From positions 1 through 48,747 of the forward strand of contig NZ_VCQT01000016.1 in NCBI RefSeq assembly GCF_005938655.1: DNA of 48,747 nt. Reading direction: 5' to 3'. This document shows positions 17,537 through 43,012 of the stretch, one piece after another. The first letter of the stretch is position 1; every line of letters starts with the position of its first letter. Both the position numbers and the translations under genes were made by a program. The notes beneath the pieces were generated by a model. The model ran no database searches. It was not told where the DNA came from and worked only from the letters and a program-made list of their open reading frames with translations. The DNA comes from Alloalcanivorax gelatiniphagus (GTDB taxonomy: Bacteria > Pseudomonadota > Gammaproteobacteria > Pseudomonadales > Alcanivoracaceae).

Positions 17537-17637
17537 CAGTTGAAAGTTACAAGTTAAAAGTTGAAAGGGCGGCTCCGCTAAAAGGGGCTGACGCTGACGG
17601 CTACGAAGCCGCCCTTTTAACTTTCAACTTTCAACTG
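17537..17637. repeat. Inverted heptamer-array element, GTTGAAA family (locus B1)
   Basis: Left arm 17537-17574 carries four 7-mers (GTTGAAA, GTTACAA, GTTAAAA, GTTGAAA) followed by GGGCGGCT. Right arm 17607-17637 is its complement but with only three 7-mers. The 32-nt centre has its own short repeats. It sits between the atuC stop and atuD, so on the minus strand it forms a long hairpin 3 nt after atuC. Confidence 0.85.
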
Positions 17638-17640
17638 CTT

Positions 17641-19251
17641 TTACAGCCTCGCCACGCCAAACGTATTGGCGCGGAGATCCCGTTCCTCCGCCTGCCGGAA
17701 AATATCCAACACATACGCCAGTACCTTGCGGGTGTCGCGGGGGTCGATGATGCCGTCGTCCCAGAGGCGCGCGGTGGCGTAGAGGGCGGTGGATTGGGCG
17801 TCCAGTTTCTGGGCGGTGCTTTGCTGCAGCATATCGAGCACCTTTTCGTCCGGTTCCAGGCCGTTGGCTTTTTGTTTGGCCTCGGCGACGATGCGCAGCA
17901 CCATGCCGGCCTGCTGGCCGCCCATCACCGCCACCCGGCTGTTCGGCCAGGAGAAGATGAAGCGCGGGTCCAGGCCACGGCCGCACATGGCGTAGTTGCC
18001 GGCGCCGTAGGAGCCGCCCACCAGGATCGACACTTTGGGCACCCGGGCGTTGGCCACCGCCTGGATCATTTTCGAGCCGTGTTTGATAACCCCGTTCTGT
18101 TCCGCGTCGGTGCCCACCATGAAGCCGGTGGTGTTGTGCAGGAACAGCAGCGGGCGGTTGGTCTGGTCGCAGAGCTGGATGAACTGGGCGGCCTTGGCGG
18201 CGCCCCGGGGGGTGATCGGGCCGTTGTTGCCGAGCACGCCCAGGGTGCGGCCTTTGATGTCGATCCAGCCGCACACGGTGGCCGCGTCCCAGTCGTTCTT
18301 GAAATCCAGAAAGTCGGAATCGTCGGCGATGCGGGCGATGATCTCGCGCACGTCATAGGGCTTCTTGGGATCGGCGGGCACCACCCCCAGCAGTTGCTCG
18401 GCGTCGTAACGGGGCGGGGCCCAGTCGCCGGCGGCACGGGGGTGATCCTTGAGGCCCAGCTTGTTCATGATGTCGCGGGCGTGGCGGATGCCGTCGGCAT
18501 CGTTTTCCGCCAGGTATTCGGCGGTGCCGGCCACGCCGGTGTGCATCTCCGCGCCGCCCAGTTCCTCGTCGCTGGCGATCTCGCCGGTGGCGGCCTTGAG
18601 CAGCGGCGGGCCGGCCAGAAACATCTTGGCCCGGTCGCGCACCAGCACCACGTAATCGGACAGGCCCGGCTGGTAGGCGCCACCGGCGGTGGCGTTGCCA
18701 TGCACCACGGTGATCTGCGGTATGCCGGCGGCGGACAGCCGCGCCTGGTTGGCGAAGGTGCGCGCGCCTTCCACGAACACTTCCGAGGCGTAGTTCAGAT
18801 TGGCGCCGCCGGATTCCACCAGGCTCACCATGGGCAGCCGGTTTTCCAGGGCGATTTTCTGCAGGCGCAGGGTTTTGTGCAGGCCCGACGGCGTCACCGT
18901 GCCGCCCTTGATGGCCGAGTTGGAGGCGGTGACCAGGCAGCGCACGCCGCTTACATAGCCGATGCCGGCGATGGTGCCGCCGCCGGCCTCGGTGCCGTCC
19001 CGGTCATCGTGCATCTTGTAGCCGGCCAGGTTCATCAGGCTCAGAAACGGGGAGCCGGCGTCCAGCAGCCGGGCCACCCGTTCGTGGGGCAGCAACTGGC
19101 CGCGTTTTTCGAACTTTTCCCGTTTGCTTTCGGCAGTGTCCACCACCGCCTGTTCAATGGCGCGGAACTCGTCCACGGCTTCCAGCAGGGCCGCGCGGTT
19201 CTGTTGGTAGACCTGGCTGTCGGGATCGAGAACGGAGTCGAGCACGGTCAT
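17641..19251 (-). CDS. atuC: Geranyl-CoA carboxylase carboxyltransferase beta subunit
   Basis: The carboxyltransferase subunit (536 residues) transfers CO2 from biotin-AtuF to geranyl-CoA. It has two crotonase-like carboxyltransferase domains: LVESGGANLNYASEVF in the first, and RTLGVLGNNGPITPRGAAKA, FLHNTTGFMVG, SYGAGNYAMCGRG in the second. Methylcrotonyl-CoA carboxylases read about EVFPDRxHFGRIF at one position; here it is EVFVEGARTFANQA, without that bulky Phe. As I recall from structural work, this difference opens the pocket for the longer geranyl chain. The stop is followed at 3 nt by heptamer element B1; atuB ends 16 nt upstream. Confidence 0.87.
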   Translation of the reverse strand: MTVLDSVLDPDSQVYQQNRAALLEAVDEFRAIEQAVVDTAESKREKFEKRGQLLPHERVARLLDAGSPFLSLMNLAGYKMHDDRDGTEAGGGTIAGIGYVSGVRCLVTASNSAIKGGTVTPSGLHKTLRLQKIALENRLPMVSLVESGGANLNYASEVFVEGARTFANQARLSAAGIPQITVVHGNATAGGAYQPGLSDYVVLVRDRAKMFLAGPPLLKAATGEIASDEELGGAEMHTGVAGTAEYLAENDADGIRHARDIMNKLGLKDHPRAAGDWAPPRYDAEQLLGVVPADPKKPYDVREIIARIADDSDFLDFKNDWDAATVCGWIDIKGRTLGVLGNNGPITPRGAAKAAQFIQLCDQTNRPLLFLHNTTGFMVGTDAEQNGVIKHGSKMIQAVANARVPKVSILVGGSYGAGNYAMCGRGLDPRFIFSWPNSRVAVMGGQQAGMVLRIVAEAKQKANGLEPDEKVLDMLQQSTAQKLDAQSTALYATARLWDDGIIDPRDTRKVLAYVLDIFRQAEERDLRANTFGVARL

Positions 19252-19267
19252 GGGGTGTCCTTGTGGT

Positions 19268-20137
19268 TCAGTCTTTCAACACGGCGGGCGTCACGGCCCG
19301 GTGGAAGCCGTCGTAGGGCCGCGAGTTGCGATGATCGGGCAGCGGGAACATGGCCACGTTGCCCTGGCTGGCGGCGCCGTCGATGCGCAGGGTGTCGCCG
19401 CTGATAAAGGCGGCGCCCTCGCACAGCAAAAAGCAGATCGCCGAGGACACTTCCGCCTCCAGGCCAAGCCGTTTGAGCGGCACCGCGTCGCGCAGGGTCT
19501 TGATGGTGCGCTGCATGCTTTCCGGGTAGGTGTCCATGCCCGAGGAGGCGATCCAGCCCGGCGCCACCGCGTTCACGCGCACGCCGCAGCAGGCCCACTC
19601 CAGGGCGGCGGTCTTGGTGAAGTTGTCCATGCCGGCGCGGGCGGCGCCGGAATGGGCCATGCCGGGCATGCCGCCCCACATGTCGGCGACGATGTTGACG
19701 ATGCTGCCGCCGTTTTGATTCATGCCCTGGGTGAACACCTCCCGGGCCATCAGAAAACCGCCGGTCAGGTTGGTGCGGATCACCGTTTCCCAGCCTTTCT
19801 GGCTGATCAGCGCCACCGGCGAGGGGAACTGACCGCCGGCGTTGTTGACCAGGCCGTCCACCCGGCCCACCGCCTTATAGATGGCGGCCACGGTGTCACG
19901 GACCTTGTCCTCGTCGCGGATGTCGCAGGCAAAGCGCAGGGCTTCCTGGCCGGTGTCCTCCAGAATTTCCCCGGCCACCGTGCGCAGCTTGTCTTCCTTA
20001 CGGCCGATCAGCACCACCCGGGCGCCCAGCGCCGCCAGTTCATGGGCGGTACAACGGCCGATGCCCGAGCCACCGCCGGTGACGATGATGGTTTTGTCCG
20101 CGAACAGGTCGTCGCGGAAAACGGAACGGTAGGGCAT
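19268..20137 (-). CDS. atuB: Short-chain dehydrogenase/reductase of the atu cluster
   Basis: A 289-residue SDR with the cofactor motif TIIVTGGGSGIG near residue 20 and NNAGGQFPSP in the middle. The segment where YxxxK normally sits reads HSGAARAGMDNFTK, so the catalytic Tyr and Lys appear to be replaced. This, with ALEW and APGWIASSGMDTY, resembles 2,4-dienoyl-CoA or trans-2-enoyl-CoA reductases rather than alcohol dehydrogenases. In P. aeruginosa atuB (PA2887) holds the same position and its exact step is not settled. ATG 20137 follows GAGGAT; an upstream in-frame start adds 15 residues. Confidence 0.8.
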   Translation of the reverse strand: MPYRSVFRDDLFADKTIIVTGGGSGIGRCTAHELAALGARVVLIGRKEDKLRTVAGEILEDTGQEALRFACDIRDEDKVRDTVAAIYKAVGRVDGLVNNAGGQFPSPVALISQKGWETVIRTNLTGGFLMAREVFTQGMNQNGGSIVNIVADMWGGMPGMAHSGAARAGMDNFTKTAALEWACCGVRVNAVAPGWIASSGMDTYPESMQRTIKTLRDAVPLKRLGLEAEVSSAICFLLCEGAAFISGDTLRIDGAASQGNVAMFPLPDHRNSRPYDGFHRAVTPAVLKD

Positions 20138-20198
20138 TCGGAATATCCTCACTGCAAAAAAATTAATTTGGGCCGGTGGCACGGCCAGCTTGCGGCTT

Positions 20199-20273
20199 GT
20201 AGGAGCGGCTTCAGCCGCGATCCGGCGGTTGGCGGGACCATTAACGCCGGATCGCGGCTGAAGCCGCTCCTAC
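20199..20273. repeat. REP inverted pair 5, overlapping the atuA 3' end
   Basis: Units at 20199-20221 and 20251-20273 with a 29-nt centre. CTA at 20270-20272 is the TAG stop codon of atuA on the minus strand; it is the first TAG of the repeat core GTAGGAGCGG. Confidence 0.9.
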
Positions 20274-22060
20274 GGGGTGGTTTTTACCTGGTGGGCGATC
20301 TCTTCGCTCACCGCGATCGGCATATCCAACAACTGCTGGGCGAACGCCTTGCCCTGGGGGTCGATGCGCAGGCTGGCGATGCCGCCGCCGCCCAGGGCGT
20401 GGCGCAGCAGGAAGTTGAAGGCGTCGAAGCCGGGCAGTTCCCAACCGCTCACGGAGCCCCGTTCCGGGTCCAGCACATGCTGCATATAGTCGGCCACCGC
20501 CTGCTCGGTGAGCGCCGCGCGCAGGTAGGGCAGGTATTCCGGCCGGCGCGCCATCACGCCGATGTTGGCGTGGTCGCCCTTGTCGCCGGAGCGCGCCCAG
20601 GCCAGTTTCACCAGCGGCACGCTGGCCGGCCCGTCGGCGGTGTCGGTGCCGCGGGTGGCGGGCAGGGTGGCCGGGTCCAGCGGTTCGCCCACCGGCACGC
20701 CCACCTCCACCGGTTGCCCTTCCAGGTCCACGGTGGCGGTCACGTCCACCTTCGGCACCAGGGTGGAGAACAGGCGAATGCGCGGCACCGGCTTGGGCCG
20801 GCCACCCACCAGCCCGGACAGGCCCGGCGCCATGCCGGTGGCGGCCTGGGCGATTTCCCGGGCAAACAGGCCCAGTGCCTTGCGGTCGTCGTGGAGGGCG
20901 GCGATTTTCACCACCACCTCGCGGGTGTCGCCGCGCCGGCCGTGGGCGCCGTAGGTGGCCTCGCTGCCGAGAATCTCCACGCTGGTGTCACGGAACGGCG
21001 CCAGCCCCAGCTGCTCGAACAGATGGCCGGTTTTGGTGAGGATGGCGTCGGCCACCACCTGCCCCTTGGCGGGGGCGTCCAGGCCGGCCATCAGAAACGA
21101 CACGGTGATGCGCTGGCCGTCCGGCCAGGTGGCGGACACCTTATAGGTGTCGGTGGGCGGCCGGCCCCGGGCGCCGCTGACCCGCACCCGGTGGTCGCCG
21201 TCCTGCTCCAGGGTCACGCCGGTGAAGTCACAGACCACGTCGGGAAGAATGTAGGCACGCGGATCGCCGATTTCATACAGCACCTGCTCGCCCACCGTGG
21301 CCCGGGTCACCAGGCCGCCGGTGCCCGGCGGTTTGGTGACCACGAAATGGCCGTCGGGGTAACACTCGGCCACCGGGAACCCCATATTGTGGAAGTCCGG
21401 CACCTGCCGCCAATCGGTGAAGTTGCCGCCGGTGCACTGGGCGCCGCACTCGATCACATGGCCGCACAGGGAACCCTGGGCGAGCTTGTCGTAGTCGTCG
21501 TCCGCCCATTGGAATTCGTGCATCAGCGGCCCCAGCGCCAGGGCGGAGTCGGCGATGCGGCCGGTCAGCACCAGGTCGGCGCCGGCGTCCAGGGCGGCCT
21601 TGATCGGCAGGGCGCCCAGGTAGGCGTTCATGGTCACGGTCATCGGCGGCAGTGGCGCGCCGCCGTCCAGCTCCCGGCAATCGGCGAAATCGCCGCGCCG
21701 GCCGTTCAGGTCGTCGCCTTCCACCAGGGCGATTTTCAGATCCACCCCGGCGGCCTCGAACACCTTGCGCAGGGCATCCCGGCAGGCCCGGGGATTGACC
21801 CCGCCGGCGTTGCTGATCACCTTGATTTTCTTGTCGCGGATCTCCCTGGCCAGCGGCGCCATCACTTGATCCACGAAATCGTGGGCGTAGCCGGCGGCGG
21901 GATCTTTCATGCGCGCCCCGGCCATGATCGACAGCGTCACTTCGGCCAGGTAGTCGAACACCAGGTAGTCGATGTCGCCCTGACGCACCAGTTGGAAGGC
22001 GGCACTGTTGGTGTCGCCCCAGAAGCCGGCGGCGCAGCCGATGCGAACAGATTCGGTCAT
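20270..22060 (-). CDS. atuA: Acyclic terpene utilisation protein AtuA (DUF1446)
   Basis: The first gene of the atu operon, 596 residues. DUF1446 fills about residues 1-450: [59 protein letters not shown] and [10 protein letters not shown]. The C-terminal part (about 480-590) is the AtuA-associated domain with [21 protein letters not shown]. aeruginosa AtuA (PA2886) is needed for citronellol growth, but its reaction is not established. The operator-like dyad at 22105-22122 lies 45 nt upstream. The stop codon is supplied by a REP element. Confidence 0.9.
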
Positions 22061-22104
22061 GGAAACGGGTCCTGATTGCCGTGGTTCGAAGGTTTTTGTA
22101 CACT

Positions 22105-22122
22105 ACCAAGCAAGCGCTTGGT
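22105..22122 (-). promoter_or_regulatory. Inverted repeat operator upstream of atuA (probable AtuR site)
   Basis: ACCAAGC and GCTTGGT are perfect complements separated by 4 nt, giving an 18-bp dyad of the size bound by TetR-family dimers. It is 45-62 nt upstream of the atuA start, where an RNA polymerase site is expected. The divergent TetR gene at 22493 is the obvious candidate to bind it. Confidence 0.65.
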
Positions 22123-22140
22123 TTGGCAAGGGGCGGCTTC

Positions 22141-22457
22141 AAGGTTCAAGCTGCAAGCTTCAAGCTACGGGTTGCAAGCTTGAGTCGGGCGGTGCTGGAA
22201 GGTGGGCCGTGCGGGTAGTAGCCGGTTGAAAGTTGAAAGTTGAAAGTTAAAAGGGTGGGGGCGGTGGGGCTTGCCGGGCCTGTGGCTTGTAGCTTGCGGC
22301 TTGCAGCCGCCCTGGGCGCGGGCAGGGCCTTGCGGCTCGCGGGGGCCTTCCCCGCGTTGCAACTTTGAACTTTGAACTTTCAACTGGCCGTGGCCGACAC
22401 ATTGCCCTCCAGCCAGACACGGCTCGCGGTCGCGGCTTGCAGCCTGCGGCTGGCCGC
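22141..22457. repeat. Composite heptamer-array element with CAAGCTN and GTTGAAA arms
   Basis: Between atuA and its divergent regulator, the arms run: CAAGCTG/CAAGCTT/CAAGCTA (22146-22168); GTTGAAA three times plus GTTAAAA (22225-22252); the CAAGC-type complement (22282-22306); the GTTGAAA complement (22357-22386); and another GCTTGCAG-type array (22431-22457). Two families are thus interleaved around GC-rich cores. No gene is seen in this stretch. Confidence 0.8.
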
Positions 22458-22492
22458 CTTTTAATGCGCCCCTGAATGAAAGGAGCCCCCAC

Positions 22493-23083
22493 ATGCCCGA
22501 CAATCCGTCCGTCCACGGTATCGACGATTCCCCCCGGGGGCGTTTGCTGAGCGCCGCCGCCCGGTTGTTCCGGGAGAAGGGGTTCGATCGGACCACGGTG
22601 CGTGATATCGCCGCCGCGGTGGGGATTCAGAGCGGTTCCATCTTCCACCATTTCAAGACCAAGGAAGACATCCTCTTCGCGGTGATGGAGGAGGTGATCC
22701 GCTTCAACACCGAGCGGTTGCGCCAGGCGGTGGCCGGCGCGGACTGCCCCCGGGACCAGTTGCGCAATCTGATCCGCGCGGAGCTTACCGCCACGGTGGG
22801 CGATACCCGCGAGGCAATGACGGTGATGGTCCAGGAGTGGCGTTGCCTCGGCGAGGACAATCAGCGCCGCGCCCTGGCCCTGCGCGATGTCTATGAGCGC
22901 CTGTGGCTGGATGTGCTGGATCGGCTCCATGCCGAGGGCGCGTTCCGGGCCGATCCGTTCATTATGCGGCGGTTGCTCACCGGCATGATCGGCTGGTCGC
23001 CCAACTGGTTCAGCACCAACCGCCGCCTGTCGGTGGACGATCTGGCGGAGATCATCGTCGAACGGGTGGTGGGGGAGTCATGA
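22493..23083 (+). CDS. atuR: TetR-family regulator, AtuR-like
   Basis: A 196-residue TetR protein with an N-terminal helix-turn-helix: LLSAAARLFREKGFDRTTV, then DIAAAVGIQSGSIFHHF with KTKEDIL (about residues 18-62), followed by a helical ligand-binding domain. It is divergent from the atu operon, as in P. aeruginosa, and probably represses it until an acyl-CoA intermediate binds. A strong AGGAG precedes the ATG. The distance to atuA is stretched to 432 nt by composite repeats. Its stop overlaps the next small gene by 4 nt. The name rests on context. Confidence 0.75.
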   Translation: MPDNPSVHGIDDSPRGRLLSAAARLFREKGFDRTTVRDIAAAVGIQSGSIFHHFKTKEDILFAVMEEVIRFNTERLRQAVAGADCPRDQLRNLIRAELTATVGDTREAMTVMVQEWRCLGEDNQRRALALRDVYERLWLDVLDRLHAEGAFRADPFIMRRLLTGMIGWSPNWFSTNRRLSVDDLAEIIVERVVGES

Positions 23084-23268
23084 TCGGCAACGGCTTCGCC
23101 TGGGGGCGCTACACCATCATGGAGGAGGGCGAGCTGGACCGGGCCACCTGGCAGCTGCGGGTGGACCACTATCTGGTGGCGGGCCCGGACGGTCTGCCCC
23201 TGCCGGGCCAGTTCCCCAGCCTGGAGGCCGCCAAGGCCTTTATCGACCAGCGTGAAGAGCGCGCCTGA
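23080..23268 (+). CDS. Small conserved-looking protein downstream of the TetR gene
   Basis: A 62-residue protein that begins MIGNGFAWGRYTIMEEG and ends FIDQREERA. The start overlaps the TetR stop as ATGA, and a GGGGGAG lies just upstream, so it is co-translated with the regulator. No signal peptide, membrane segment or known motif is seen; the composition (mixed charge, several aromatic residues) is that of a folded small protein. The phrase PSLEAAKAFIDQ resembles a C-terminal helix. I do not recognise a family. Confidence 0.65.
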   Translation: MIGNGFAWGRYTIMEEGELDRATWQLRVDHYLVAGPDGLPLPGQFPSLEAAKAFIDQREERA

Positions 23269-23377
23269 GGGCCGGCGTCCCGCGCCTGTATACTGCATCC
23301 CGGGCCCTGTATCGGCGCCAGGGGCGCCCTGTTCGGGCAATTTATGAACGAACGGTGTCCGTGGGGTAAAAAAGCCG

Positions 23378-23405
23378 TTGACACCCGGGGCCCAATCCCT
23401 AAAAT
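23378..23405 (+). promoter_or_regulatory. tRNA promoter
   Basis: A perfect -35 (TTGACA, 23378-23383) and a 5/6 -10 (TAAAAT, 23400-23405) with a 16-nt spacer. It is followed by a GC-rich discriminator (GGCGCCC), as at stringently controlled stable RNA promoters. The start would be about 23 nt before tRNA-Val. Confidence 0.85.
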
Positions 23406-23434
23406 GGCGCCCACTTCGCAACGCGAAGCCCAGA

Positions 23435-23510
23435 GGGTGGTTAGCTCAGCTGGGAGAGCGTCTGCCTTACAAGCAGAGGGTCGGCGGTTCGATCCCGTCA
23501 CCACCCACCA
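23435..23510 (+). tRNA. tRNA-Val(UAC)
   Basis: The 76-nt gene folds as a cloverleaf: acceptor GGGTGGT with ACCACCC, D-arm with AGCTCAGCTGGGAGAGC, anticodon stem TCTGC/GCAGA enclosing CTTACAA (anticodon TAC), T-arm GGCGGTTCGATCCCGTC, discriminator A and encoded CCA. It is co-transcribed with tRNA-Asp, 34 nt downstream. Confidence 0.97.
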
Positions 23511-23544
23511 GTTTCCCATAGGGCCCAGGCCCGCAGGGAGAGTC

Positions 23545-23621
23545 GGAGCGGTAGTTCAGTTGGTTAGAATACCGGCCTGTCACGCCGGGGGTCGCGGGTT
23601 CGAGTCCCGTCCGCTCCGCCA
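23545..23621 (+). tRNA. tRNA-Asp(GUC)
   Basis: The 77-nt gene has acceptor GGAGCGG/CCGCTCC, anticodon stem CCGGC/GCCGG enclosing CTGTCAC (anticodon GTC), T-arm GCGGGTTCGAGTCCCGT, discriminator G and encoded CCA. It is second in the two-tRNA operon and followed by a strong terminator. Confidence 0.97.
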
Positions 23622-23669
23622 ACTCTTCATGATCTTTTCTCCTTAAGTGGATATTTGCAGTTTGATTTG

Positions 23670-23697
23670 GCGCCGGCTGTTTCAGCCGGCGCTTTTT
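23670..23697 (+). terminator. Terminator of the tRNA operon
   Basis: A perfect 10-bp stem GCGCCGGCTG/CAGCCGGCGC with a 3-nt TTT loop followed by TTTTTG, 49 nt after tRNA-Asp. Confidence 0.92.
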
Positions 23698-23699
23698 GT

Positions 23700-23952: not shown

Positions 23953-24051
23953 ATGGACGAATACCTGGAAGACCAACTGGAAGAAAAACTGTGGCTGGAA
24001 AGCCTGGACGAACTGGACGATGACCTGTGCGACGACGGTGTGGAGCTCTAG
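23953..24051 (+). CDS. Very acidic 32-residue peptide
   Basis: ATG at 23953 is preceded by AAGGAGTCCCCAC, an excellent ribosome binding site. The 32 residues begin MDEYLEDQLEEKLWL and contain 15 Asp/Glu against one Lys, with Leu residues spaced as in an amphipathic helix and a single Cys near the end (DDLCDDG). There is no signal peptide. Function unknown; acidic mini-proteins can bind basic proteins, mimic nucleic acid or bind metal, but nothing here proves any of these. It is isolated between the tRNA operon and the coiled-coil gene. Confidence 0.65.
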   Translation: MDEYLEDQLEEKLWLESLDELDDDLCDDGVEL

Positions 24052-26917: not shown

Positions 26918-26963
26918 CCGCCCCCGCACCGCCGGGGCCGGCCCTGGCAACGGGCCCCGGAAC

Positions 26964-27857: not shown

Positions 27858-28195
27858 GCTGCAAGCCTCAAGCTTCAAGCCGCAGGCAGGCCGTGGAGGG
27901 CGGAGGGGCCGTGCCAGCAAGCGCCAGTTGAAAGTTAAAAGTTCAAAGTTAAAACGCGGGTTGGGCGCGTGGGGCGGCGAGGCCGTGCCCACGTTCAGGG
28001 TGGCCACAATCTCCAAGCTCCAAGCCACAAGCCACCCCATACCGGCCGCAGGCCGCGGCAGCCCCTCTCAGCCAGGCCCTTTCAACTTTTAACTTTAAAC
28101 TTTGAACTGGCCCGTTCCCGGCACGGCCTGCCCGCAGCTTGTAGCTTGTAGCTTGCCCCTTGAAGCTTGCCGCCCTTGCATCCTGTATCCTACCC
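27858..28195. repeat. Nested double inverted heptamer-array element
   Basis: Outer arms are CAAGCNN type (27858-27884 and 28131-28172). Inside them lie GGGGCCGTGCC (27905-27915) and CCCGGCACGGCC (28117-28128), then inner GTTGAAA-type arms (27927-27954 with four 7-mers; 28079-28107 with complements). The centre holds a third CAAGC-type array (28011-28034). A CAGGATR-type half arm ends the region (28177-28195). It fills the 377-nt gap between nadK and yeaC; no gene is present. Confidence 0.85.
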
Positions 28196-31153: not shown

Positions 31154-31284
31154 ATCGCGGCTAAAGCCGCTCCTACACCAAGCTCTCATTGTAGGAGCGG
31201 CTTCACCCGCGCCCCCCAAAGCCCTGTAGGAGCGGCTTCAGCCGCGATCCCCCAAGCCCCCGTAGGAGCGGCTTTAGCCGCGAT
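31154..31284. repeat. REP cluster 6, four units
   Basis: One unit in reverse orientation (31154-31176) and three forward units starting at 31191, 31226 and 31262, spaced about 35 nt apart. The second unit is diverged (CTTCACCCGC). It is followed without gap by a CAGGATR heptamer arm. Confidence 0.9.
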
Positions 31285-31285
31285 A

Positions 31286-31449
31286 CAGGCTTCAGGATGC
31301 AGGATACAGCCGCGAGAAAGCCCTTACCGACGGCAGGGGCCGGCACCCGCGCGGAAGCCCCCGCCCCGGTTTCAGCGCGGAGCACACCCCCGCGCGGCCC
31401 CGCCCAAACGATCCCCGCGCCTGCACCCTGTATCCTTCATCCTGCATCC
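31286..31449. repeat. Inverted heptamer-array element, CAGGATR family (locus C1)
   Basis: The left arm has CAGGCTT, CAGGATG, CAGGATA, CAG (31286-31309); the right arm (31420-31449) is its complement with CACCCTG, TATCCTT, CATCCTG and CATCC. The core of about 110 nt is GC-rich. It lies between pepN and pyrD, just upstream of the pyrD promoter. Confidence 0.8.
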
Positions 31450-31493
31450 AGCCCCTCGCATCACCCGGCCTGTATCGCGGGCGCCGGTGCCCG

Positions 31494-32527: not shown

Positions 32528-32532
32528 GGGCA

Positions 32533-32677
32533 GTTCAAAGTTGAAAGTTCAAAGTTGAAAGCGCGGACTTGGCCTGAGGTACTCGCAGGCCGTGCCCGCG
32601 CCCATTTCGCGGGCACGGCGTCAACCGTCAGGATGAACCCGGCTCGCGCTTTCAACTTTGAACTTTCAACTTTCAAC
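32533..32677. repeat. Inverted heptamer-array element, GTTGAAA family, with inner hairpin (locus B4)
   Basis: The left arm has GTTCAAA, GTTGAAA, GTTCAAA, GTTGAAA (32533-32560); the right arm has TTTCAAC, TTTGAAC, TTTCAAC, TTTCAAC (32650-32677). GCGCG/CGCGC extend the stem inward. In the loop GCCGTGCCCGCG (32589-32600) and its exact complement (32608-32619) form a 12-bp hairpin with a 7-nt loop. The element starts 6 nt after the pyrD stop. Confidence 0.9.
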
Positions 32678-35586: not shown

Positions 35587-35630
35587 CCGCCGGGCCGCCG
35601 GTGCGGCCGCACCCCCGTTGAGGAGTAAAT

Positions 35631-35939: not shown

Positions 35940-35960
35940 AGGATCGCGGACCGCCGTCCA

Positions 35961-36400
35961 ATCGCGACTGAAGTCGCTCCTACAACAACCGCTCCGCTTA
36001 GCCGCGATGCCGGCACCGCCCCCCCCCCCGCTGTAGGAGCGGCTTCAGCCGCGATCCGGGCGCCGCCGCCCGCCGGAACGCCCGGGCAACGCCCCACTTC
36101 AGCCGCGATGCCGGCACCGCCACCCCTCTGTAGGAGCGGCTTCAGCCGCGACCCGGGCGCCGCCGCCCGGCAGGAACGCCCGAGCAACGCTCCACTTCAG
36201 CCGCGATGCCGGCACCACCGCCCCTCTGTAGGAGCGGCTTCAGCCGCGATCCGGACACCGCCGCCCGCCGGAACGCCCGGGCAAAGCTCCGCTTCAGCCG
36301 CGATGGCGGCACCGCCACCCCGCCGTAGGAGCGGCTTCAGCCGCGATCCGGACACCGCCGACCCGCCGGAACGCCCGGGCAACGCTCCACTTCCGCGATG
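35961..36400. repeat. Tandem array of a 97-98 bp REP-containing unit
   Basis: After one reverse REP (35961-35983), a unit containing a forward REP, a GC-rich CCGCCG stretch, CCGGAACGCCCGGGCAACGC and a half REP (CACTTCAGCCGCGATG) repeats about four times. REP starts lie near 36033, 36130, 36228 and 36325, so the period is 97-98 nt. It fills the 467-nt gap between two convergent genes and holds no gene. Confidence 0.9.
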
Positions 36401-36406
36401 CGGCGT

Positions 36407-37222
36407 TTATCGGTTCAGAAAACGGCGGGTATTGGCCAGGGTACGGGCCGCCAGGTCCGCCTCGTCCTCGCCGCGCAGGGTCGCCAGGCGGCGGCCGATC
36501 CAGGGCAGAAAACAGGGCTCGTTGCGGCGTTTCACCGGCGGTGGCTCCGGCAGGTCCCGGGGCAGCAGGTAGGGCGCGTCGGTTTCCACCAGCAGCCGGT
36601 CGCCGGGAATGTCCGGCACCAGCTCCGCCAGGCCCCGGCCGCGCCGTTCATCGCACACCCAGCCAGTGATGCCGATGTGGCAGTCCAGATCCAGATAGTC
36701 GTACAGCGCCCGCCGTTCATCGGTGAAGCAGTGCACCACGGCGGCGGGGAGCCGGTCGCGCCAGGCCCGCAGGATGGGAAGAAAACGGGCGTGGGCGTCG
36801 CGCTGGTGCAGAAAGACCGGCAGCCCCTTTTCCGCCGCCAGGGCCAGCTGGCTCTCGAACGCCTTTTCCTGATCCGGCCGGGGAGAAAAGTCCCGGTTGA
36901 AGTCCAGGCCCATTTCACCGGCGGCGGCCACTTCCGGCTGGTCCAGCAGCTCCGCCAACTCGGCGCGGGCGTCGTTATCGAACTGGCGGGCGTTGTGCGG
37001 ATGCACCCCGGCGGTGGCGAGCAGGCCCCGATCCGGGAAATCGCGGCACAGGGTCAGCGCCTGCCGGGATTCCGCCACACTGGTGCCGGTCAGCAGCATC
37101 AGTACCACGCCGGCGTCCCGGGCCCGGTCCAGCACCGCTTCGCCGTCGTCGCGGAACTGCCGGTCGCCCAGATTCACGCCGATGTCCGCCCAGCCGGCGG
37201 CGGTTCCGTCCCGGTCGCTCAT
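36407..37222 (-). CDS. tatD: TatD-family metal-dependent hydrolase
   Basis: A 271-residue TIM-barrel hydrolase of the TatD DNase family. It has [12 protein letters not shown] at the start, [47 protein letters not shown] and [16 protein letters not shown], which carry the metal-binding His, Glu and Asp residues. TatD proteins act as 3'-5' exonucleases in DNA repair. The ATG overlaps the DUF1499 gene stop by 4 nt, so it belongs to the lexA operon, which suits a repair function. Confidence 0.92.
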
Positions 37223-37785
37223 GAGGCCGGGCGGGGGCTGGGCTGCAAACGCTCTTCAAGGGCCTGGCGCAGGTCTTCCACCCGGCGCCGGTTGGCGCCC
37301 AGATCCCAATAGCCCAGCCGCGAGGCGGAGCGCACTTCGATCACCCCGTCCTCGTGCACGTAAAAGGTCACGTCGTCCACGAACCGCAACACGCGGGTGG
37401 TGAAGCGGGCTTCCACCCGGGCGGGTCCCACCGCCCGGTGGCTGACCCGGGGCCAGTCTTCCAGCACCGCGTCGAGCAGCGCCAGGCTATCGGCGCGATT
37501 GCCGGCGCCGGGCAGCGGCGCCACCCGGTGGCGGTCATCGTCCGCCAGACTGGACACGCAATTCGGTGACGAAGGACAAGGGGCAAGCAAACGGGTGTCC
37601 GTCATATTCGGTCTCTCCACTGACCTGACAGTCTTCTCTGAGGAAGGTGATCCTGACAGGGAATGTACCATGGCCGTGCCGTCGCCGCGCCCGTCGTTGC
37701 GGCAGCCGGCCAGCAGCAGCACGCCGGGCAGCAACAGGCCCAGCAGAACGGCGGTCAGTGCTTTTCTAGTGTCTGTTCGGGTCAC
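37219..37785 (-). CDS. DUF1499 lipoprotein
   Basis: The 188-residue protein has a signal peptide with a lipobox (VLLLAGC, Cys at about 28) and so is probably an outer-membrane or periplasmic lipoprotein. The DUF1499 domain (about 65-180) begins [13 protein letters not shown], with a typical [13 protein letters not shown] and [18 protein letters not shown]. No biochemical role is known. It overlaps lexA by 20 nt upstream and tatD by 4 nt downstream. Confidence 0.82.
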
Positions 37786-38380
37786 GGATAAGGCCCACGA
37801 AAATACCCTCGATCATCAGCTCGTCCGCCGGCACCCGGATCGGCTCATAGGCCTCGTTGGCCGGCAGCAGCGTGGCGTTGGAACGGTTCAGTCTAAGCGT
37901 TTTCACCGTGACTTCGTCGTCAATGCGCGCCACCACGATCTCGCCGGAGCGCGCGGTCTGGCTTTTGCGCACCGCGATCAGGTCGCCGTCGAAGATGCCG
38001 GCGTCGATCATACTGTCGCCCTGCACCTTGAGCAGGTAGGTGGGTCGCTGGCGGAACAGGCCCTGGGGCACCGGCACGGTGCGCTCCACGTTCTCGATGG
38101 CCTCGATGGGCGTGCCGGCGGCCACCTTGCCCACCACCGGCAGTTCGTCCTCGTGTTCCAGCGCCGCCTCCAGCAGCTGGATGCCCCGGGAGCGGTCGCT
38201 GTGCAGCCGGATGTAGCCCTTGCGTTCCAGCGCCCGCAGGTGGTCCGAGGCGGCGTTCTTGGACTGGAAGCCCATGCGCTCGGCGATTTCCGCCCGGGTG
38301 GGGGCCATGCCGGTTTCCATCTGCGAATCGCGGATGCAGTCCAGCACCTGCTGCTGACGTGCGGTTAGCGTGCTGCTCAT
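37766..38380 (-). CDS. lexA: LexA repressor
   Basis: The SOS repressor, 204 residues. The N-terminal winged helix begins LTARQQQVLDCIRD, with MAPTRAEIAERMGFQSKNAASDHL as recognition region (about 25-50). The C-terminal peptidase has the Ala-Gly cleavage site (KVAAGTP), the catalytic Ser in VQGDSMIDAGI and the Lys in VVARIDDEVTVKTL. ATG 38380 follows GGAGAACGTT; a longer frame upstream is an artefact. The operator lies at 38407-38422. It heads an operon with the DUF1499 and tatD genes. Confidence 0.97.
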   Translation of the reverse strand: MSSTLTARQQQVLDCIRDSQMETGMAPTRAEIAERMGFQSKNAASDHLRALERKGYIRLHSDRSRGIQLLEAALEHEDELPVVGKVAAGTPIEAIENVERTVPVPQGLFRQRPTYLLKVQGDSMIDAGIFDGDLIAVRKSQTARSGEIVVARIDDEVTVKTLRLNRSNATLLPANEAYEPIRVPADELMIEGIFVGLIRDPNRH

Positions 38381-38406
38381 AACGTTCTCCTGGAGTGTCT
38401 TGGACA

Positions 38407-38422
38407 CTGATAATATGAACAG
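38407..38422 (-). promoter_or_regulatory. LexA operator (SOS box)
   Basis: On the minus strand CTGTTCATATTATCAG fits CTGT-N8-ACAG with one end base changed. It overlaps a likely promoter with -35 TGGACA and a -10 near TATCAG. The box is 27 nt upstream of lexA and 62 nt upstream of the divergent cNMP-binding gene, so it may control both. Confidence 0.75.
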
Positions 38423-38483
38423 TATTATATGTCCAGTGTTTTTGGAAGTACCATGAGGAGGATTGAGGGGGAGAAAGGGATCA

Positions 38484-39137
38484 ATGCAACACGCGAACTG
38501 GCAGAAAACCGACCCCGGGCGGGTGGAAACACTGCTCGCCGGGGTGCCGTTTTTCAACGAGGTGGGCCGCGACGACCTGGCCCAGAGAGAGCGGCTTCTG
38601 GCGCGCACGGAAATCATCGAGGCGGCCTCCGGCGACACCGTGATCCGCGCCGGCGAGGTGGAATCCAGCCTCTACTTTCTGTTGCGCGGGCAACTGGTGG
38701 TGCTGGACGACGAAGACCCGGCCAAAGTGCTCTATTACGTGTCGCCGGGGGAGATGTTCGGCACCCTGTCCATGCTGCTGGGGCAGGCCCGCAGCGCCAC
38801 TATCCAGGTGGCGGACGCGGCCCGGGAAGCGGTGCTGGCCCGGCTGGATTTCAACGATTTCGACGACGATCGCGGCACGCCCTACACCCTGGCCACCCGC
38901 CTGGCGTTCTTTCATATGCTGGTGCATCAGATTCGCTGGGCGGTGGAGGTGCGGCGCATGCACCGCCCGGACCCGGCCATGGCCGCGGCCCTGCGCAAGG
39001 TGCCGGTGTTCGCTGGCGAACGGGACAGCGAAGCGGAACTGGCCTCCCTCCGCGACCAGGCCCGCGCCCTGGCGGATTTGCTTTATCGGTGGAATCATCC
39101 GCCGCCGGGGTCCACGGGGAATGCGCAGCTGACTTGA
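38484..39137 (+). CDS. Cyclic-nucleotide-binding domain protein
   Basis: A 217-residue protein with a CNB domain at about residues 20-125 (PFFNEVGRDDLAQRERLL, VIRAGEVESSLYFLLRGQLVVLDD, SPGEMFGTLSMLLGQARSATIQV). The rest is helical, rich in Ala and Arg, without a recognisable Crp-type helix-turn-helix, so it is not an evident transcription factor. A second protein with CNB domains is encoded in this window at 25847. ATG 38484 follows GAAAGGGA. It is divergent from lexA; the shared spacer holds the SOS box. Confidence 0.75.
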   Translation: MQHANWQKTDPGRVETLLAGVPFFNEVGRDDLAQRERLLARTEIIEAASGDTVIRAGEVESSLYFLLRGQLVVLDDEDPAKVLYYVSPGEMFGTLSMLLGQARSATIQVADAAREAVLARLDFNDFDDDRGTPYTLATRLAFFHMLVHQIRWAVEVRRMHRPDPAMAAALRKVPVFAGERDSEAELASLRDQARALADLLYRWNHPPPGSTGNAQLT

Positions 39138-39144
39138 GGGGGGA

Positions 39145-39313
39145 GTTACAAGTTGAAAGTTGAAAGTTGAAAGGGCGGGCATTGAGAAGCCTCGCCGCGG
39201 CCTCCGGCCGTTGGGGCGCGGGCTGTAACGTGCCGCCGCCGTTACTCGCGGGCACGGCCTTGCTGGCTTCGCGGCTTCTCTCGCGTTGTAACTTTTAACT
39301 TTGAACTTTCAAC
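39145..39313. repeat. Inverted heptamer-array element, GTTGAAA family (locus B5)
   Basis: Left arm GTTACAA then GTTGAAA three times (39145-39172) and GGGCGG; right arm TTGTAAC, TTTTAAC, TTTGAAC, TTTCAAC (39286-39313). The core contains GGGCACGGCC (39250-39259), also seen in other elements. It begins 7 nt after the stop codon of the cNMP-binding gene. Confidence 0.85.
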
Positions 39314-39332
39314 TTCCCAACGGGCCGGCCTT

Positions 39333-39393
39333 ATCGCGGCTGAAGCCGCTCCTACCGGGAATTGGTGGTTGTAGGAGCGGCTTCAGCCGCGAT
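39333..39393. repeat. REP inverted pair 8
   Basis: Perfect inverted pair, 39333-39355 and 39371-39393, directly following heptamer element B5, between the convergent cNMP-binding and uspA genes. Confidence 0.9.
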
Positions 39394-39413
39394 GCCCGGC
39401 CGGTTGGGGCGAG

Positions 39414-39863
39414 CTATTCCTTCTTCTTCCTCTCCATCTTCACCGCCAGCACATCACAATGGGCGCCGGGGACCAGTCCCCGGGCGGTGGAGCCGAGCAG
39501 CAGGGCCAGGCCGCTGCGGGTGTGGCTGCCCACCACGATCAGGTCGGCGTCCAGGTCGTCGGCCTTGTCGAGGATGGTTTTCTCGATGGAGCCCAGTTCC
39601 ACATGCACCCGTTCCTTGGGGATCTGGTACTGGCGGGCGTAGTTGCAGGCGGTTTCCCGGGCCTGCTTGACCAGGCCGCTTTGCAGGTCGGTCACGTCCA
39701 TGGGCACATCGGCGCCGTAGGCCAGGGCCAGCGGCTCGATCACGTGGATCAGGTGCAGTTCGCCCTCGGTGCCGGCGATGACCCCGGCGGCGCGGGCCAG
39801 TACCTCGGCGGATTCGTCGCTGCAGTCGATGGCCACCAGGACCTTGCGATAGGGTGCGGACAC
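39414..39863 (-). CDS. Universal stress protein (UspA family)
   Basis: A 149-residue Usp protein: YRKVLVAIDCSDESAEVLARAA at the start, a HLIHVIEP strand, DADLIVVGSHTRSG and LLLGSTARGLVPGAHCDVLAVK. The ATP-binding pattern G-2x-G-9x-G(S/T) is present as GSHTRSGLALLLGST. A GTG start at 39863 is preferred because GGAGAAAAATC precedes it and family members begin just before YRKVLVA; the ATG frame upstream adds 54 unrelated residues. Confidence 0.88.
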   Translation of the reverse strand: MSAPYRKVLVAIDCSDESAEVLARAAGVIAGTEGELHLIHVIEPLALAYGADVPMDVTDLQSGLVKQARETACNYARQYQIPKERVHVELGSIEKTILDKADDLDADLIVVGSHTRSGLALLLGSTARGLVPGAHCDVLAVKMERKKKE

Positions 39864-40039
39864 GATTTTTCTCCAGTGGCTCGGTGTCGCTACCGAGTAT
39901 AACTTGCCGGACGCCCGCCGCCAGCCCGCCGTTAAAGGGCCACCGGCGAGGGCGGCAAAGCCTTGCGGGGCGCGGCTTTGGCGGCCTTCGCGGGGGGCGC
40001 CGGCGGGCATCGGGGCGGTGCTCACCGGGCGGTCGGCGC

Positions 40040-40068
40040 TTGACCGGACAATACCGGCGCTGTCTAAA
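40040..40068 (+). promoter_or_regulatory. Candidate topA promoter
   Basis: TTGACC (40040-40045, 5/6) and TCTAAA (40063-40068, 4/6) have an ideal 17-nt spacer. The leader would be about 130 nt. Confidence 0.6.
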
Positions 40069-40135
40069 TAGGCGCCCGCCGGGGCCCTGAAGGCCGCCCG
40101 GCGGTACCTCCGGACACTTGGACCGGCACGGCGAT

Positions 40136-40156
40136 CCCGTGCGGCCCACGGGTTTT
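40136..40156 (+). promoter_or_regulatory. Terminator-like hairpin in the topA leader
   Basis: CCCGTG, a 5-nt loop, and CACGGG are followed by TTTT, between the candidate topA promoter and the start codon. It could act as an attenuator or mark an RNA end; the T-run is short. Confidence 0.4.
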
Positions 40157-40203
40157 ACGGAGGTTTCTTTTGGATATCCGCATCATGATCGGGTGAGCAA
40201 CGA

Positions 40204-42930
40204 ATGGGTAAGTCCCTTGTAATCGTGGAGTCGCCGGCCAAGGCCAAGACCATCAACCGCTATCTGGGCGACGACTTCGTGGTCAAGTCCAGTGTCGGCC
40301 ATGTGCGCGACCTGCCGGTGAGCGGTGGCGCGAAAAAGACCACGCCCAAGGAGCGTGCCAAGGAGGCCGCCTACACCCGGTCCCTGCCCAAGGAAGAACG
40401 GGAAGCCTATAAAAAGAAGAAGTCCCAGGCTCAGCTGATCAATCGCATGGGGGTGGACCCGGAGCACGACTGGAACGCCCACTACGAGATCCTGCCCGGC
40501 AAGGAAAAGGTCATCGACGAGCTCAAGCGTCTGGCCGCCAATGCCGACCGCATCTATCTGGCCACTGACTTGGACCGCGAAGGGGAAGCCATTGCCTGGC
40601 ACCTGCGGGAAGTGATCGGTGGTGACGACCAGCGCTTCGACCGGGTGGTGTTCAACGAGATCACCAAGAAAGCCATCCAGGCCGCGTTCCAGAAACCCGG
40701 CAAGCTGGACATGAGCCGCGTGGAAGCCCAGCAGGCGCGCCGTTTCCTGGACCGGGTGGTGGGCTTCATGATCTCGCCGCTGCTGTGGGAAAAGATCGCC
40801 CGGGGCCTGTCCGCCGGCCGCGTGCAGTCGGTGGCGGTGGAGCTGGTGGTGGAACGCGAGCGCGAGATCCGCGCCTTTACCCCGGAGGAATTCTGGGAGC
40901 TGCACGCGGACACCCACAGCCAGGCCAAAGCCAGCGACGAGATCCGCCTGCAGGTGACCCGCCATAACGGCGAGAACTTCCGCCCCAACAATGGCACGGA
41001 CGCGGAAAAGCACCGCGCCGCCCTGATGGCCGCCGGCCAGCTGACCATTACCCAGCGCGAGGAACGGCCCACCCGTTCCAAGCCGCCGGCGCCGTTCATC
41101 ACCTCCACCCTGCAGCAGGCGGCCAGCACCCGCCTGGGCTTCGGCGTGAAGAAAACCATGATGATGGCCCAGCGCCTCTATGAGGCCGGCCACATCACCT
41201 ATATGCGGACCGACTCCACCAACCTGAGCGCCGACGCGGTCAACGAGTGCCGTGCCTGGATCGACGACCAGCTGGGCGGCAAGTACCTGCCGGAAAAGCC
41301 GATCAGCTATTCCAGCCGGGACGGCGCCCAGGAAGCCCACGAGGCGATCCGCCCGTCCGACGTGAAGCGCGAAGCCAGCGGCCTGAAGGACATGGAGCGC
41401 GACGCCCAGCGTCTCTACGAACTGATCCGCCGCCAGTTCATCGCCTGCCAGATGCCGCCGGCGCAGTACCTGAGCACCACCATCACCGCTGAGGCGGACG
41501 GCTACGAGCTGAAAGCCCGCGGTCGCATTCTCAAATTCGACGGCTGGACCCGTATCCAGCCCCAGGCCTCCCGCAAGGGCCAGGAAGACACCGTGCTGCC
41601 GGACCTCAAGCAGGGCGACGTGCTGGCGGTGGACGACATCGACGCCACCCAGCACTTCACCAAGCCGCCGGCGCGCTACACCGAGGCCAGCCTGGTCAAG
41701 GAACTGGAAAAACGCGGCATCGGCCGCCCGTCCACCTACGCGGCGATCATTTCCACGATCCAGGACCGGGGCTATGTGCGGCAGGACAACCGCCGCTTCT
41801 ACGCCGAGAAAATGGGCGACATCGTCACCGACCGTTTGGTGGAGAACTTCCCCCACCTGATGGATTACAACTTCACCGCCGAGATGGAAGAAACCCTGGA
41901 CGAAGTGGCCGAGGGCAAGCGCCACTGGCGTGACGTGCTCGACGAGTTCTACCGGGATTTCCTGGCCAAGCTGGAAGCCGCCCAGGGCGAGGGCAGCGGC
42001 AAGCAGGCCAAGGGAGGCATGCGCGCCAACCTGCCCACGGACACCGACATCGAGTGCCCGAAATGCGGCCGGCCCATGCAGATCCGCACCGGTTCCACCG
42101 GCGTGTTCCTCGGTTGCTCGGGCTACAGCCTGCCGCCCAAGGAACGCTGCACCGCCACGCTCAACCTGCTGCCCGGCGAAGAGGCGGTGCGCGCCGACGA
42201 CGACGAGGAAGCGGAAACCAACGAGCTGCGTCGCAAGAAGCGTTGCCCCAAATGCGGCACCGCCATGGAATCCTACCTGATCGACGAAAAGCGCAAGCTG
42301 CACATCTGCGGGAACAACCCGGACTGTGACGGCTACGTGGTGGAGAAGGGCGAGTTCCGCATCAAGGGCTACGACGGTCCGACCCTGGAGTGCGAAAAGT
42401 GCGGCAACGAAATGCAGCTGCGCACCGGCCGCTTCGGCAAGTTCTTCAAGTGCACCAACGACGACTGCGGCAACACCCGCAAGCTGCTCAAGAACGGTGA
42501 ACCGGCGCCGCCCCGGGCCGACCCCATCGACATGCCGCACCTGCAATGCGAGAAAGTGGACGACCACTACCTGCTGCGCGACGGCGCCTCCGGCCTGTTC
42601 CTGGCCGCCAGCCAGTTTCCCAAGAACCGGGAAACCCGCGCCCCGCTGGTCGAGGAGATCCAGACCGTCGCCGACAAGCTGGACCCCAAGCACAAGTACC
42701 TGGCGGACGCCCCGGCGCAGGACTCCAAGGGTCGCAAGGCGGTACTGCGCTACAGCCGCAAGGCCAAGGAGCAGTACGTGATGACCGAGGAAGACGGCAA
42801 GCCCACCGGTTGGTACGCCTTCTACCGCGACGGCCACTGGGACGTGGAAGAGAAGAAAACCGCGCCCAAGAAAAAAGCCGCCGCCAAGAAGAAAAAGGCC
42901 CCGGCGAAGAAGAAAGCCGCCAAGAAATAG
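40204..42930 (+). CDS. topA: DNA topoisomerase I (type IA)
   Basis: TopA relaxes negative supercoils by single-strand passage. The protein has 908 residues: a TOPRIM domain ([19 protein letters not shown] and the acidic triad in [16 protein letters not shown]), the catalytic Tyr333 in [11 protein letters not shown], and [10 protein letters not shown]. There are three C4-type zinc-binding motifs after residue 615: [16 protein letters not shown] and CEKCGNEM. A Lys/Ala-rich tail of about 25 residues follows a small C-terminal domain and should bind DNA or RNA polymerase. The stop TAG runs directly into a CAAGC-type heptamer array. Confidence 0.97.
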
Positions 42931-43012
42931 CTACAAGCGACAGGCTGCAAGCAGCAAGCTAAAAGAGGTGCCGGTGCGATAGCCGGCTTGCAGCTTGTCG
43001 CTTGAGGCTTGT
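42930..43012. repeat. Inverted heptamer-array element, CAAGCNN family (locus A3)
   Basis: The left arm CTACAAGCGACAGGCTGCAA with GCAGCAAGCT (42931-42960) starts on the base after the topA stop codon. The right arm GGCTTGCAGCTTGTCGCTTG with AGGCTTGTA (42984-43012) is largely complementary. The core is only 23 nt, the shortest of the elements seen. It lies just ahead of the next gene's ribosome binding site. Confidence 0.85.

What the first reader, a model, noticed from the sequence alone, without database searches (positions are those of the whole stretch)
17537..43012. Three unrelated sequence families share one design: 7-mer arrays arranged as long inverted repeats
Seen: GTTGAAA-type arms (17537-17637, 22225-22386, 27927-28107, 32533-32677, 39145-39313), CAAGCNN-type arms (22141-22306, 27858-28172, 42930-43012) and CAGGATR-type arms (31286-31449, half arm 28177-28195). 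Each arm has three to four tandem heptamers, one purine-rich, and the partner arm has the complementary heptamers. In several loci unit number differs between arms (four against three at 17537), so the 7-nt period is kept even when the copy number drifts. All lie outside genes, often within 0-10 nt of a stop codon. Known: heptanucleotide tandem repeats exist in other bacteria, for example cyanobacterial short tandem repeats, but I do not recall a family in inverted form with three unrelated sequences. Inference: a 3'-end RNA structure or a mobile/recombining repeat class.
Basis: partly seen in the sequence, partly recalled or inferred. Interest (0 to 1): 0.82.

Follow-up and report, generated by a model that had tools for sequence, protein, structure and literature searches.

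The report
Flipping inverted heptamer repeat elements
A bacterial genome close to Alloalcanivorax carries small DNA elements whose two ends are runs of a seven-letter repeat facing each other; they usually sit just behind genes, come and go between species, and their middle part is sometimes turned around, which makes them a testable new variant of a little-studied repeat class.

Summary
The window has 15 period-7 arrays against none in five shuffles. Of 149 complementary array pairs in the sampled DNA, 143 point inward, none outward, 6 undecided. Of 48 merged loci in this genome none lies in a called gene (8 touch one, by at most 21 nt), and 27 of 37 with a stop codon on one side are within 10 nt of it. 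The three 'unrelated' families share one unit grammar, RG[TCA]TN[AC]A, fifth base free. Arms of one element are barely or not more complementary than arms of different elements, so selection for each element's own hairpin is not supported. Between species, elements appear and vanish at the same gap. In 4 of 10 resolvable orthologous elements the core is inverted; these have the longer loops, 87-124 nt against 25-79. Inverted heptamer pairs are not new: Rehm et al. 2015 described GGGAATC pairs in Xanthomonas (PMC4692102). New here: several dialects in one genome, a core shared between dialects, nesting, core inversion. Verdict: new variant of a known kind, probably a small mobile repeat whose arms are recognition or recombination sites; the enzyme is unknown.

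The parts
17538..17567 (+). G arm (AGTTNAA x4) of element A, gap between two minus-strand genes (acyl-CoA dehydrogenase and carboxyl transferase by Pfam)
17568..17613 (.). core of element A (short, GC stem, without the shared core motif); same orientation in G003 and G009
17614..17636 (-). G partner arm (x3) of element A, 4 nt from the stop codon of the gene at 17641-19251
22138..22166 (+). C arm (RGCTNCA), interlocked with the next G element
22225..22253 (+). G arm of element B (divergent gap)
22277..22307 (-). C partner arm, inside the loop of the G element
22361..22385 (-). G partner arm of element B
27862..27880 (+). outer C arm, 7 nt after the stop codon of the NAD kinase gene
27926..27954 (+). 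G arm nested inside the C arms
28007..28035 (+).
28079..28108 (-). G partner arm
28136..28171 (-). outer C partner arm
28177..28195 (-). B half arm (CATCCTGTATCC); a longer CCTGCATCCTGTATCTTGAATCC arm stands there in G004 and G006
31286..31309 (+). B arm (GGATNCA) of element D
31310..31419 (.). core of element D; inverted in G006 relative to the window (77 reverse, 22 forward)
31420..31452 (-). B partner arm of element D
32532..32561 (+). G arm of element E, 4 nt after the stop codon of pyrD (dihydroorotate dehydrogenase by Pfam)
32562..32648 (.). core of element E; its first 44 nt are found inverted at the same gap in G009
32588..32600 (+). core motif GGCCGTGCCCGCG
32649..32677 (-). G partner arm of element E
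39144..39173 (+). G arm of element F, 6 nt after the stop codon of a cNMP-binding-domain gene
39286..39315 (-). G partner arm of element F
42929..42959 (+). C arm of element G, abutting the stop codon of the topoisomerase I gene
42986..43011 (-). C partner arm of element G

Best explanation
These are small non-coding repeat elements (loop 46-106 nt for the middle half of 149, each arm mostly 3-4 heptamers) that turn over in the genus like REP or MITE elements. Each heptamer RG[TCA]TN[AC]A acts as one unit of a sequence-specific recognition site, several units stand head to tail, and two such arrays face inward around a core. Shown: unit grammar, fixed polarity, placement mostly just behind stop codons, presence/absence between species, nesting, a core motif shared by a part of the elements under different heptamer dialects, and inversion of the core in some orthologous elements. 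Inferred: a DNA-binding or recombination protein reads the arms; exchange between the arms flips the core; slippage changes unit number; the same or another machinery spreads copies. The trans-acting factor and any use to the host are unknown.
For: Position profile from arrays found without a motif: six positions >=0.92 conserved in the G (586 units) and B (89 units) dialects, position 5 free; in C (230 units) position 4 is 0.73. Position 5 was left out of the register score and arms needed 0.72 agreement elsewhere. Polarity 143 inward, 0 outward, 6 ties of 149. Core motif GGCNNNGCCCGCG or its reverse complement: 46 of 128 hits lie in the 1.1% of DNA inside elements (49-fold); reversed-motif control 0 of 63 inside. 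Same core between B arms and between G arms. Patchy copies: overlapping AGTTNAA x3 matches 176, 139, 130, 62, 10, 2 and seven zeros in 13 genomes. Gap comparisons: 339 found no pair in the other genome, against 103 same-gap element pairs. Core inversion at gaps D, E, F, I, scores 64-137 reverse against 20-50 forward. Inverted loops 87-124 nt, uninverted 25-79 nt, Fisher p 0.005, which fits exchange that needs a DNA loop. Arms of one element covary little or not.
Against: No transposase or recombinase was tied to the elements, and no clear target duplication was seen. At gap H, G003 looks like a deletion that left half a heptamer (AACTT), so some absences are losses. Only 10 orthologous elements could be resolved; the length split is narrow (79 against 87 nt) and was noticed after the fact. 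Two further apparent inversions (gap B, L089) were dropped because a paralog matches better. Of the four kept, F could not be tested against paralogs (no other element in the L014 and L017 stretches), and E is locus-specific only over 44 nt. Inversions could also arise by hairpin-driven strand switching, or be assembly choices in draft genomes. About two thirds of elements (98 of 149) lack the core motifs.
Confidence: 0.5

Rival explanations
1. Selected 3'-end RNA hairpins: the arms pair in the transcript behind the stop codon and protect or end the mRNA.
For: 27 of 37 loci with a stop on one side are within 10 nt of it; RNA folding z median -5.9 against -1.05 for controls, arms at least half paired in 49 of 52 minimum-energy folds. 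Whole-arm complementarity within elements is slightly above shuffled partners (20.55 against 20.07, sd 0.25, maximum of 60 shuffles 20.65).
Against: Arm-arm agreement at the free base 0.506 against 0.523 for shuffled partners (39 elements); outer and inner flanks no better than shuffled (52 elements). No U tract (T fraction 0.19). Nine of 46 loci in divergent gaps. A hairpin would not need one fixed polarity. REP loci in the same genome also favour stops (34 of 99 within 10 nt), so placement alone may be tolerance.
Confidence: 0.2
2. Passive products of DNA instability: heptamer slippage makes the arrays, and hairpin-mediated strand switching during replication makes and flips the inverted form, without any dedicated protein.
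For: Array length drifts, up to 12-13 units; chloroplast loop inversions are tied to hairpins (search listing; passage in PMC3123225 citing other work); arms fold strongly.
Against: Free position 5 beside near-fixed other positions is not what slippage plus drift gives. Arms of one element hardly resemble each other more than arms of other elements, though strand switching should homogenise them. A core motif found at many loci needs dispersal. Shorter loops should flip more easily, yet the flipped ones are the longer.
Confidence: 0.18
3. REP-like elements moved by a RAYT (Y1) transposase of the host.
For: Some gaps hold a REP pair in one species and a heptamer element in another (gaps H and I); 3 of 149 loops contain a REP; both favour stop-proximal sites.
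Against: The two Y1 genes of this genome: one (C9, L213) has two REPs on each side and no heptamers, the other (L199) has neither in the 3.3 kb read. Y1 counts do not follow heptamer counts: 2 in G000 (176 matches) and 5 in G009 (130), but 5 each in G002, G008 and G010 with 0.
Confidence: 0.07
4. Binding arrays for a nucleoid or global regulatory protein, as proposed for paired tandem arrays in Geobacter.
For: Unit-wise constraint and fixed polarity; Geobacter metallireducens has tandem 7- and 8-mer arrays, mostly paired, annotated as global regulator sites (PMC2700814, passages).
Against: Patchy within one genus and mostly behind stop codons rather than at promoters; frequent presence/absence between species.
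Confidence: 0.05

Closest known systems
GGGAATC heptamer repeats of Xanthomonas (Rehm et al. 2015, PMC4692102; passages, sections 10 and 14 read)
   Same: Tandem heptamers, mostly four units, free bases in the unit (GGGANTN), convergent inverted pairs (70 and 75 cases), mostly intergenic and close to the upstream ORF (average 28 nt).
   Different: Different unit, G-quadruplex type; that paper finds mostly conserved sites (83% at the same place in the sister species), and the parts I read report no shared core, dialects, nesting or core inversion. In 14 pairs I found in that family 8 loops were under 60 nt and the core motif occurred once in 83 kb.
Cyanobacterial heptamers (STRR, name recalled) and Beggiatoaceae TAACTGA repeats (PMC4679880, passages)
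   Same: Intergenic tandem heptamers, patchy across taxa.
   Different: Beggiatoaceae: 169 direct sets and one indirect, mostly near start codons.
Geobacter metallireducens H4 heptamers and class 1-3 arrays (PMC2700814, passages)
   Same: Tandem 7- or 8-mers; the classes described as mostly paired, with legends that run from one strand to the other.
   Different: Other units; proposed regulator sites; no turnover or inversion in the passages I saw.
REP/REPIN elements with RAYT (definition recalled)
   Same: Small dispersed intergenic elements, stop-proximal, patchy.
   Different: Tandem-heptamer arms instead of a short palindrome, no RAYT linkage in this genome.
MITEs (definition recalled)
   Same: Short, inverted repeats at both ends, presence/absence.
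   Different: Ends are tandem units hardly matched within an element; no parent transposon or target duplication found.

Membership tests
Xanthomonas-type inverted heptamer repeats | tandem heptamers, mostly four units | tested here: met
   by array length, 175 of 298 arms have four units, 75 three
Xanthomonas-type inverted heptamer repeats | convergent inverted pairs | tested here: met
   143 inward, 0 outward, 6 ties of 149 pairs
Xanthomonas-type inverted heptamer repeats | intergenic, nearest the upstream ORF end | tested here: met
   no locus of 48 inside a gene, 8 touch one by at most 21 nt; tandem gaps nearer stop 22, nearer start 2
Xanthomonas-type inverted heptamer repeats | G-rich unit able to form G-quadruplex | tested here: not met
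   consensus units AGTTNAA, RGCTNCA, GGATNCA have no G3 run
REP/REPIN | RAYT gene flanked by its own repeats | tested here: not met
   in G000 one of two Y1 genes has REPs on both sides, neither has heptamers beside it; other genomes' Y1 loci were not read
MITE | terminal inverted repeats | tested here: met
   arms of opposite orientation at both ends
MITE | target-site duplication | tested here: inconclusive
   empty sites at gaps E, H and I read by eye; H is a deletion scar
MITE | related autonomous transposon | not tested
   no systematic look for genes between distant arms; 23% of the genome was read
Intrinsic terminator | GC stem followed by U tract | tested here: not met
   T fraction 0.19 in the 8 nt after the arms, both strands
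Known RNA family (Rfam 15) | match over gathering score | tested here: not met
   only two tRNAs in the window

The most novel reading that the evidence does not exclude
A distinct class of mobile, invertible elements whose ends are written in tandem heptamers that different lineages spell in different dialects under one grammar, moved and flipped by a still unknown dialect-specific recombinase, with the Xanthomonas repeats as a distant branch of the same class.
Probability: 0.25. Interest if true: 0.87.

Novelty: new variant of a known kind. Interest (0 to 1): 0.62.

Why it matters
Heptamers are over-represented among bacterial tandem repeats, and in 2015 Rehm et al. still noted that no detailed literature on them existed. 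This genus gives a direct test bed: congeners with 0 to 176 array matches, filled and empty orthologous sites, several unit dialects side by side, and cores that have turned around. If a protein reads the arms, it would be a new recombination or transposition system. If not, the elements are a clean case for studying how inverted tandem arrays arise and flip during replication.

Tried and rejected
The first class-wide try for GGGANTC x3 hit 3 of 185; the family around G102 gave 28 of 60. Two apparent inversions (gap B; L089 5414/5491) were dropped because paralogs score 71 and 105; with them the count would be 6 of 12. Core orientation relative to the adjacent gene was 9 against 3, too few to use. 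Whether different dialects share gaps more often than chance was not tested. Papers: the one search naming Alcanivorax with intergenic, repeat and palindromic listed 7 papers, none on such repeats by title and abstract; general heptamer searches led to the papers cited. Only the open-licence library was searched.
Full report
WHERE IT IS. The window is contig C8 of a 4.2 Mb genome. Its PyrD is 92% identical to that of Alloalcanivorax marinus and 90% to that of A. profundimaris. One further CAAGC arm lies at 28007-28035. Neighbouring genes by Pfam: acyl-CoA dehydrogenase, carboxyl transferase, AtuA, TetR, NAD kinase, dihydroorotate dehydrogenase, RlmL, cNMP-binding, Usp and topoisomerase I. 'rmf' for the small minus-strand gene after pyrD is my own reading, from no call.

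BEYOND CHANCE. A detector that knows only the period found 15 period-7 arrays in the window and none in five shuffles. I then took 389 kb chosen around GTTGAAA hits and 400 kb chosen by place. The first held 94 arrays and 35 complementary pairs, the second 13 and 5; periods 5-6, 8-13 and 15 gave no pair, and 14 gave some as a multiple of 7. In 69 loci from other Gammaproteobacteria and a few other taxa (L020-L088) there were 14 arrays and 1 pair, the pair in L065 with the unit GTGAGGC. The window is therefore a rich patch of a rich genome.

THE UNIT. Arms found without a motif were registered on four consensus units, position 5 left out of the score and 0.72 agreement required elsewhere. G (160 arms, 586 units): A .99, G 1, T 1, T .96, N (G .47, A .42, C .06, T .04), A .93, A .98. 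C (230 units): AGC with T .73, N, C, A. B (89 units): GGAT N CA. K (35 units, found in relatives): AGT[TG][AG]A[CT]. G, C and B thus fit RG[TCA]TN[AC]A with the fifth base free and C rare there. A hybrid array, AGTTGCA units beside AGTTNAA, stands at L089:15887-15921. So 'three unrelated families' should read 'dialects of one grammar'. G005 adds a GGACGCY dialect.

THE ELEMENT. Over all stretches (147 elements from the genus, one each from L014 and L017) I had 149 pairs. By array length, arms have mostly four (175 of 298) or three (75) units and differ in unit number in 84 of 149; the median loop is 83 nt. Polarity is inward in 143, outward in 0, undecided in 6. Many loops carry a common core: arm, ACGCGGG, about 25 nt, GGCCGTGCCCGCG, variable cargo, GGCCGNAGGCCGCGG, CGACCT, partner arm, or its reverse complement, read by eye from 39 G elements. 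The strict core motif occurs 128 times in 1.69 Mb, 46 of them in the 1.1% inside elements; the reversed motif occurs 63 times, none inside. With both core motifs counted, 51 of 149 elements carry one and 98 do not. Cargo includes C half arms, REPs (3 of 149 loops) and, at L123:982-1127, a terminator-like hairpin. A G009 element at gap F has this core between CAGGAT arms. Elements nest (7 pairs) or interlock (4 pairs): window 27862-28171 has G arms inside C arms, and at the same gap G010 has B arms inside C arms.

PLACE. With a simple codon-usage gene caller of my own, none of 48 merged loci lay in a gene; 46 could be classed: 24 in tandem, 13 in convergent and 9 in divergent gaps. Eight touch a gene, by at most 21 nt. 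Of 37 with a stop codon on one side, 27 were within 10 nt of it, small overlaps counted; the null was 10.8 (sd 2.1, maximum 18 in 1000). Of 33 with a start codon on one side, none was within 10 nt. REP loci in the same DNA: 34 of 99 within 10 nt of a stop.

HAIRPIN? Folding is strong: median z -5.9 for 52 elements, -1.05 for 50 control gaps. But the free base agrees between the two arms of an element no more than between shuffled arms (0.506 against 0.523, 39 elements). Outer and inner flanks gave the same answer; whole arms were marginally above shuffled partners (20.55 against 20.07, sd 0.25; 52 elements). There is no U tract. The stem exists mainly because both arms are spelled in one dialect, not because each element keeps its own pairing.

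TURNOVER AND INVERSION. I compared orthologous gaps in congeners. There were 103 same-gap element pairs and 339 gap comparisons with no complementary pair in the other genome. Twenty-five gap groups had elements in at least two genomes; in 13 the dialects were disjoint between two of them. I did not test whether that re-use exceeds chance. Gap A holds G elements in four genomes, K elements in three, a half arm of another unit in one, and is empty in G004. At gap H, G003 matches the G009 sequence minus the element, leaving AACTT, a loss. At gap I, G009 and G006 have B elements whose cores match only in reverse complement (137 against 24; paralogs at most 29). Gap D: the window and G009 against G006, 77 and 64 reverse against 22 and 20 (paralogs at most 40). 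Gap E: the first 44 nt of the window core match G009 reversed at 78, next best element 40; the rest of the G009 core has a better paralog (105). Gap F: L014 against L017, 124 reverse, 50 forward, around a palindromic terminator; no paralog was at hand to compare. Same orientation: gap A (G), gap A (K), L099:5372 (four genomes), L105:14058, L188:8111 and L188:3969. So 4 of 10 resolvable elements are inverted; their loops are 87-124 nt, the others 25-79 (scored with 2 nt of arm on each side, hence 91-128 and 29-83; Fisher p 0.005; a split noticed afterwards). Two more apparent inversions were dropped because of paralogs.

RANGE. AGTTNAA x3 occurs in 6 of 13 genus genomes, 0 to 176 overlapping matches; AGTTNAN x3 plus AGTT in 5 of 398 phylum genomes, this one included. 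The C and B units occur in 1 of 229 class genomes each, namely this one. GGGANTC x3 occurs in 28 of 60 genomes around G102, which I take to be Xanthomonadaceae because of the published unit. There 14 complementary pairs were found in 29 loci, 8 with loops under 60 nt that look unrelated by eye; the core motif occurs once in their 83 kb.

WHAT MOVES IT. This genome has two Y1 genes; one (C9) has GTAGGAGCGACTTCAGTCGCGAT REPs on both sides and neither shows heptamers in the 3.2-3.3 kb read. Y1 counts in the genus do not follow heptamer counts. I found no other candidate and did not search for one systematically.

LITERATURE. Rehm et al. 2015 (PMC4692102; passages, sections 10 and 14) describe GGGAATC arrays in Xanthomonas: 186 and 183 arrays, mostly four units, 70 and 75 convergent pairs, close to the upstream ORF. 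Geobacter metallireducens has paired tandem arrays read as regulator sites (PMC2700814, passages). TAACTGA heptamers in Beggiatoaceae are direct repeats (PMC4679880, passages). One search naming Alcanivorax listed 7 papers, none on such repeats by title and abstract. Hairpin-linked loop inversions are known from chloroplasts (search listing; a passage citing other work).

VERDICT. Real, orderly, not explained by chance or by selection for each element's own pairing; a new variant of the inverted-heptamer kind, with core inversion as its most surprising property.

Noticed in passing
window 31160-31285, 35990-36393, 39335-39393: Clusters of REP sequences (GTAGGAGCGGCTTCAGCCGCGA); 232 single REPs in 113 loci in 838 kb; one Y1 gene (G000 C9:20646) is flanked by the variant GTAGGAGCGACTTCAGTCGCGAT.
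   Followed up: partly
window 48562-48747: A 14-base tandem array (CGGAACAAACCGGA, about 13 copies) running to the contig end.
   Followed up: no
window 22106-22126: Imperfect palindrome CCAAGCAAGCGCTTGGTTTGG upstream of a TetR gene; its CCAAGCAAGCGCTTGG part is kept in all eight congeners compared although the rest of the gap turns over; looks like an operator.
   Followed up: no
G006 (L177/L178), gap after pyrD: About 8 kb stand where the window has element E; contents not examined.
   Followed up: no
L179:6108-6461: Two tandem copies of a GGACGCY-dialect element in G005 with very similar cores.
   Followed up: no
L065:4458-4516: Inverted GTGAGGC heptamer pair in an unrelated proteobacterial MAG.
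   Followed up: no
L014:17325-17470 and L017:17005-17160: Heptamer arms enclose the terminator between a cNMP-binding gene and a universal stress gene (by homology of the flanks); the enclosed segment is inverted between the two.
   Followed up: yes
window 23953-24051: Very short acidic ORF (MDEYLEDQLEEKLWLESLDELDDDLCDDGVEL) behind a ribosome-binding-like AGGAG.
   Followed up: no
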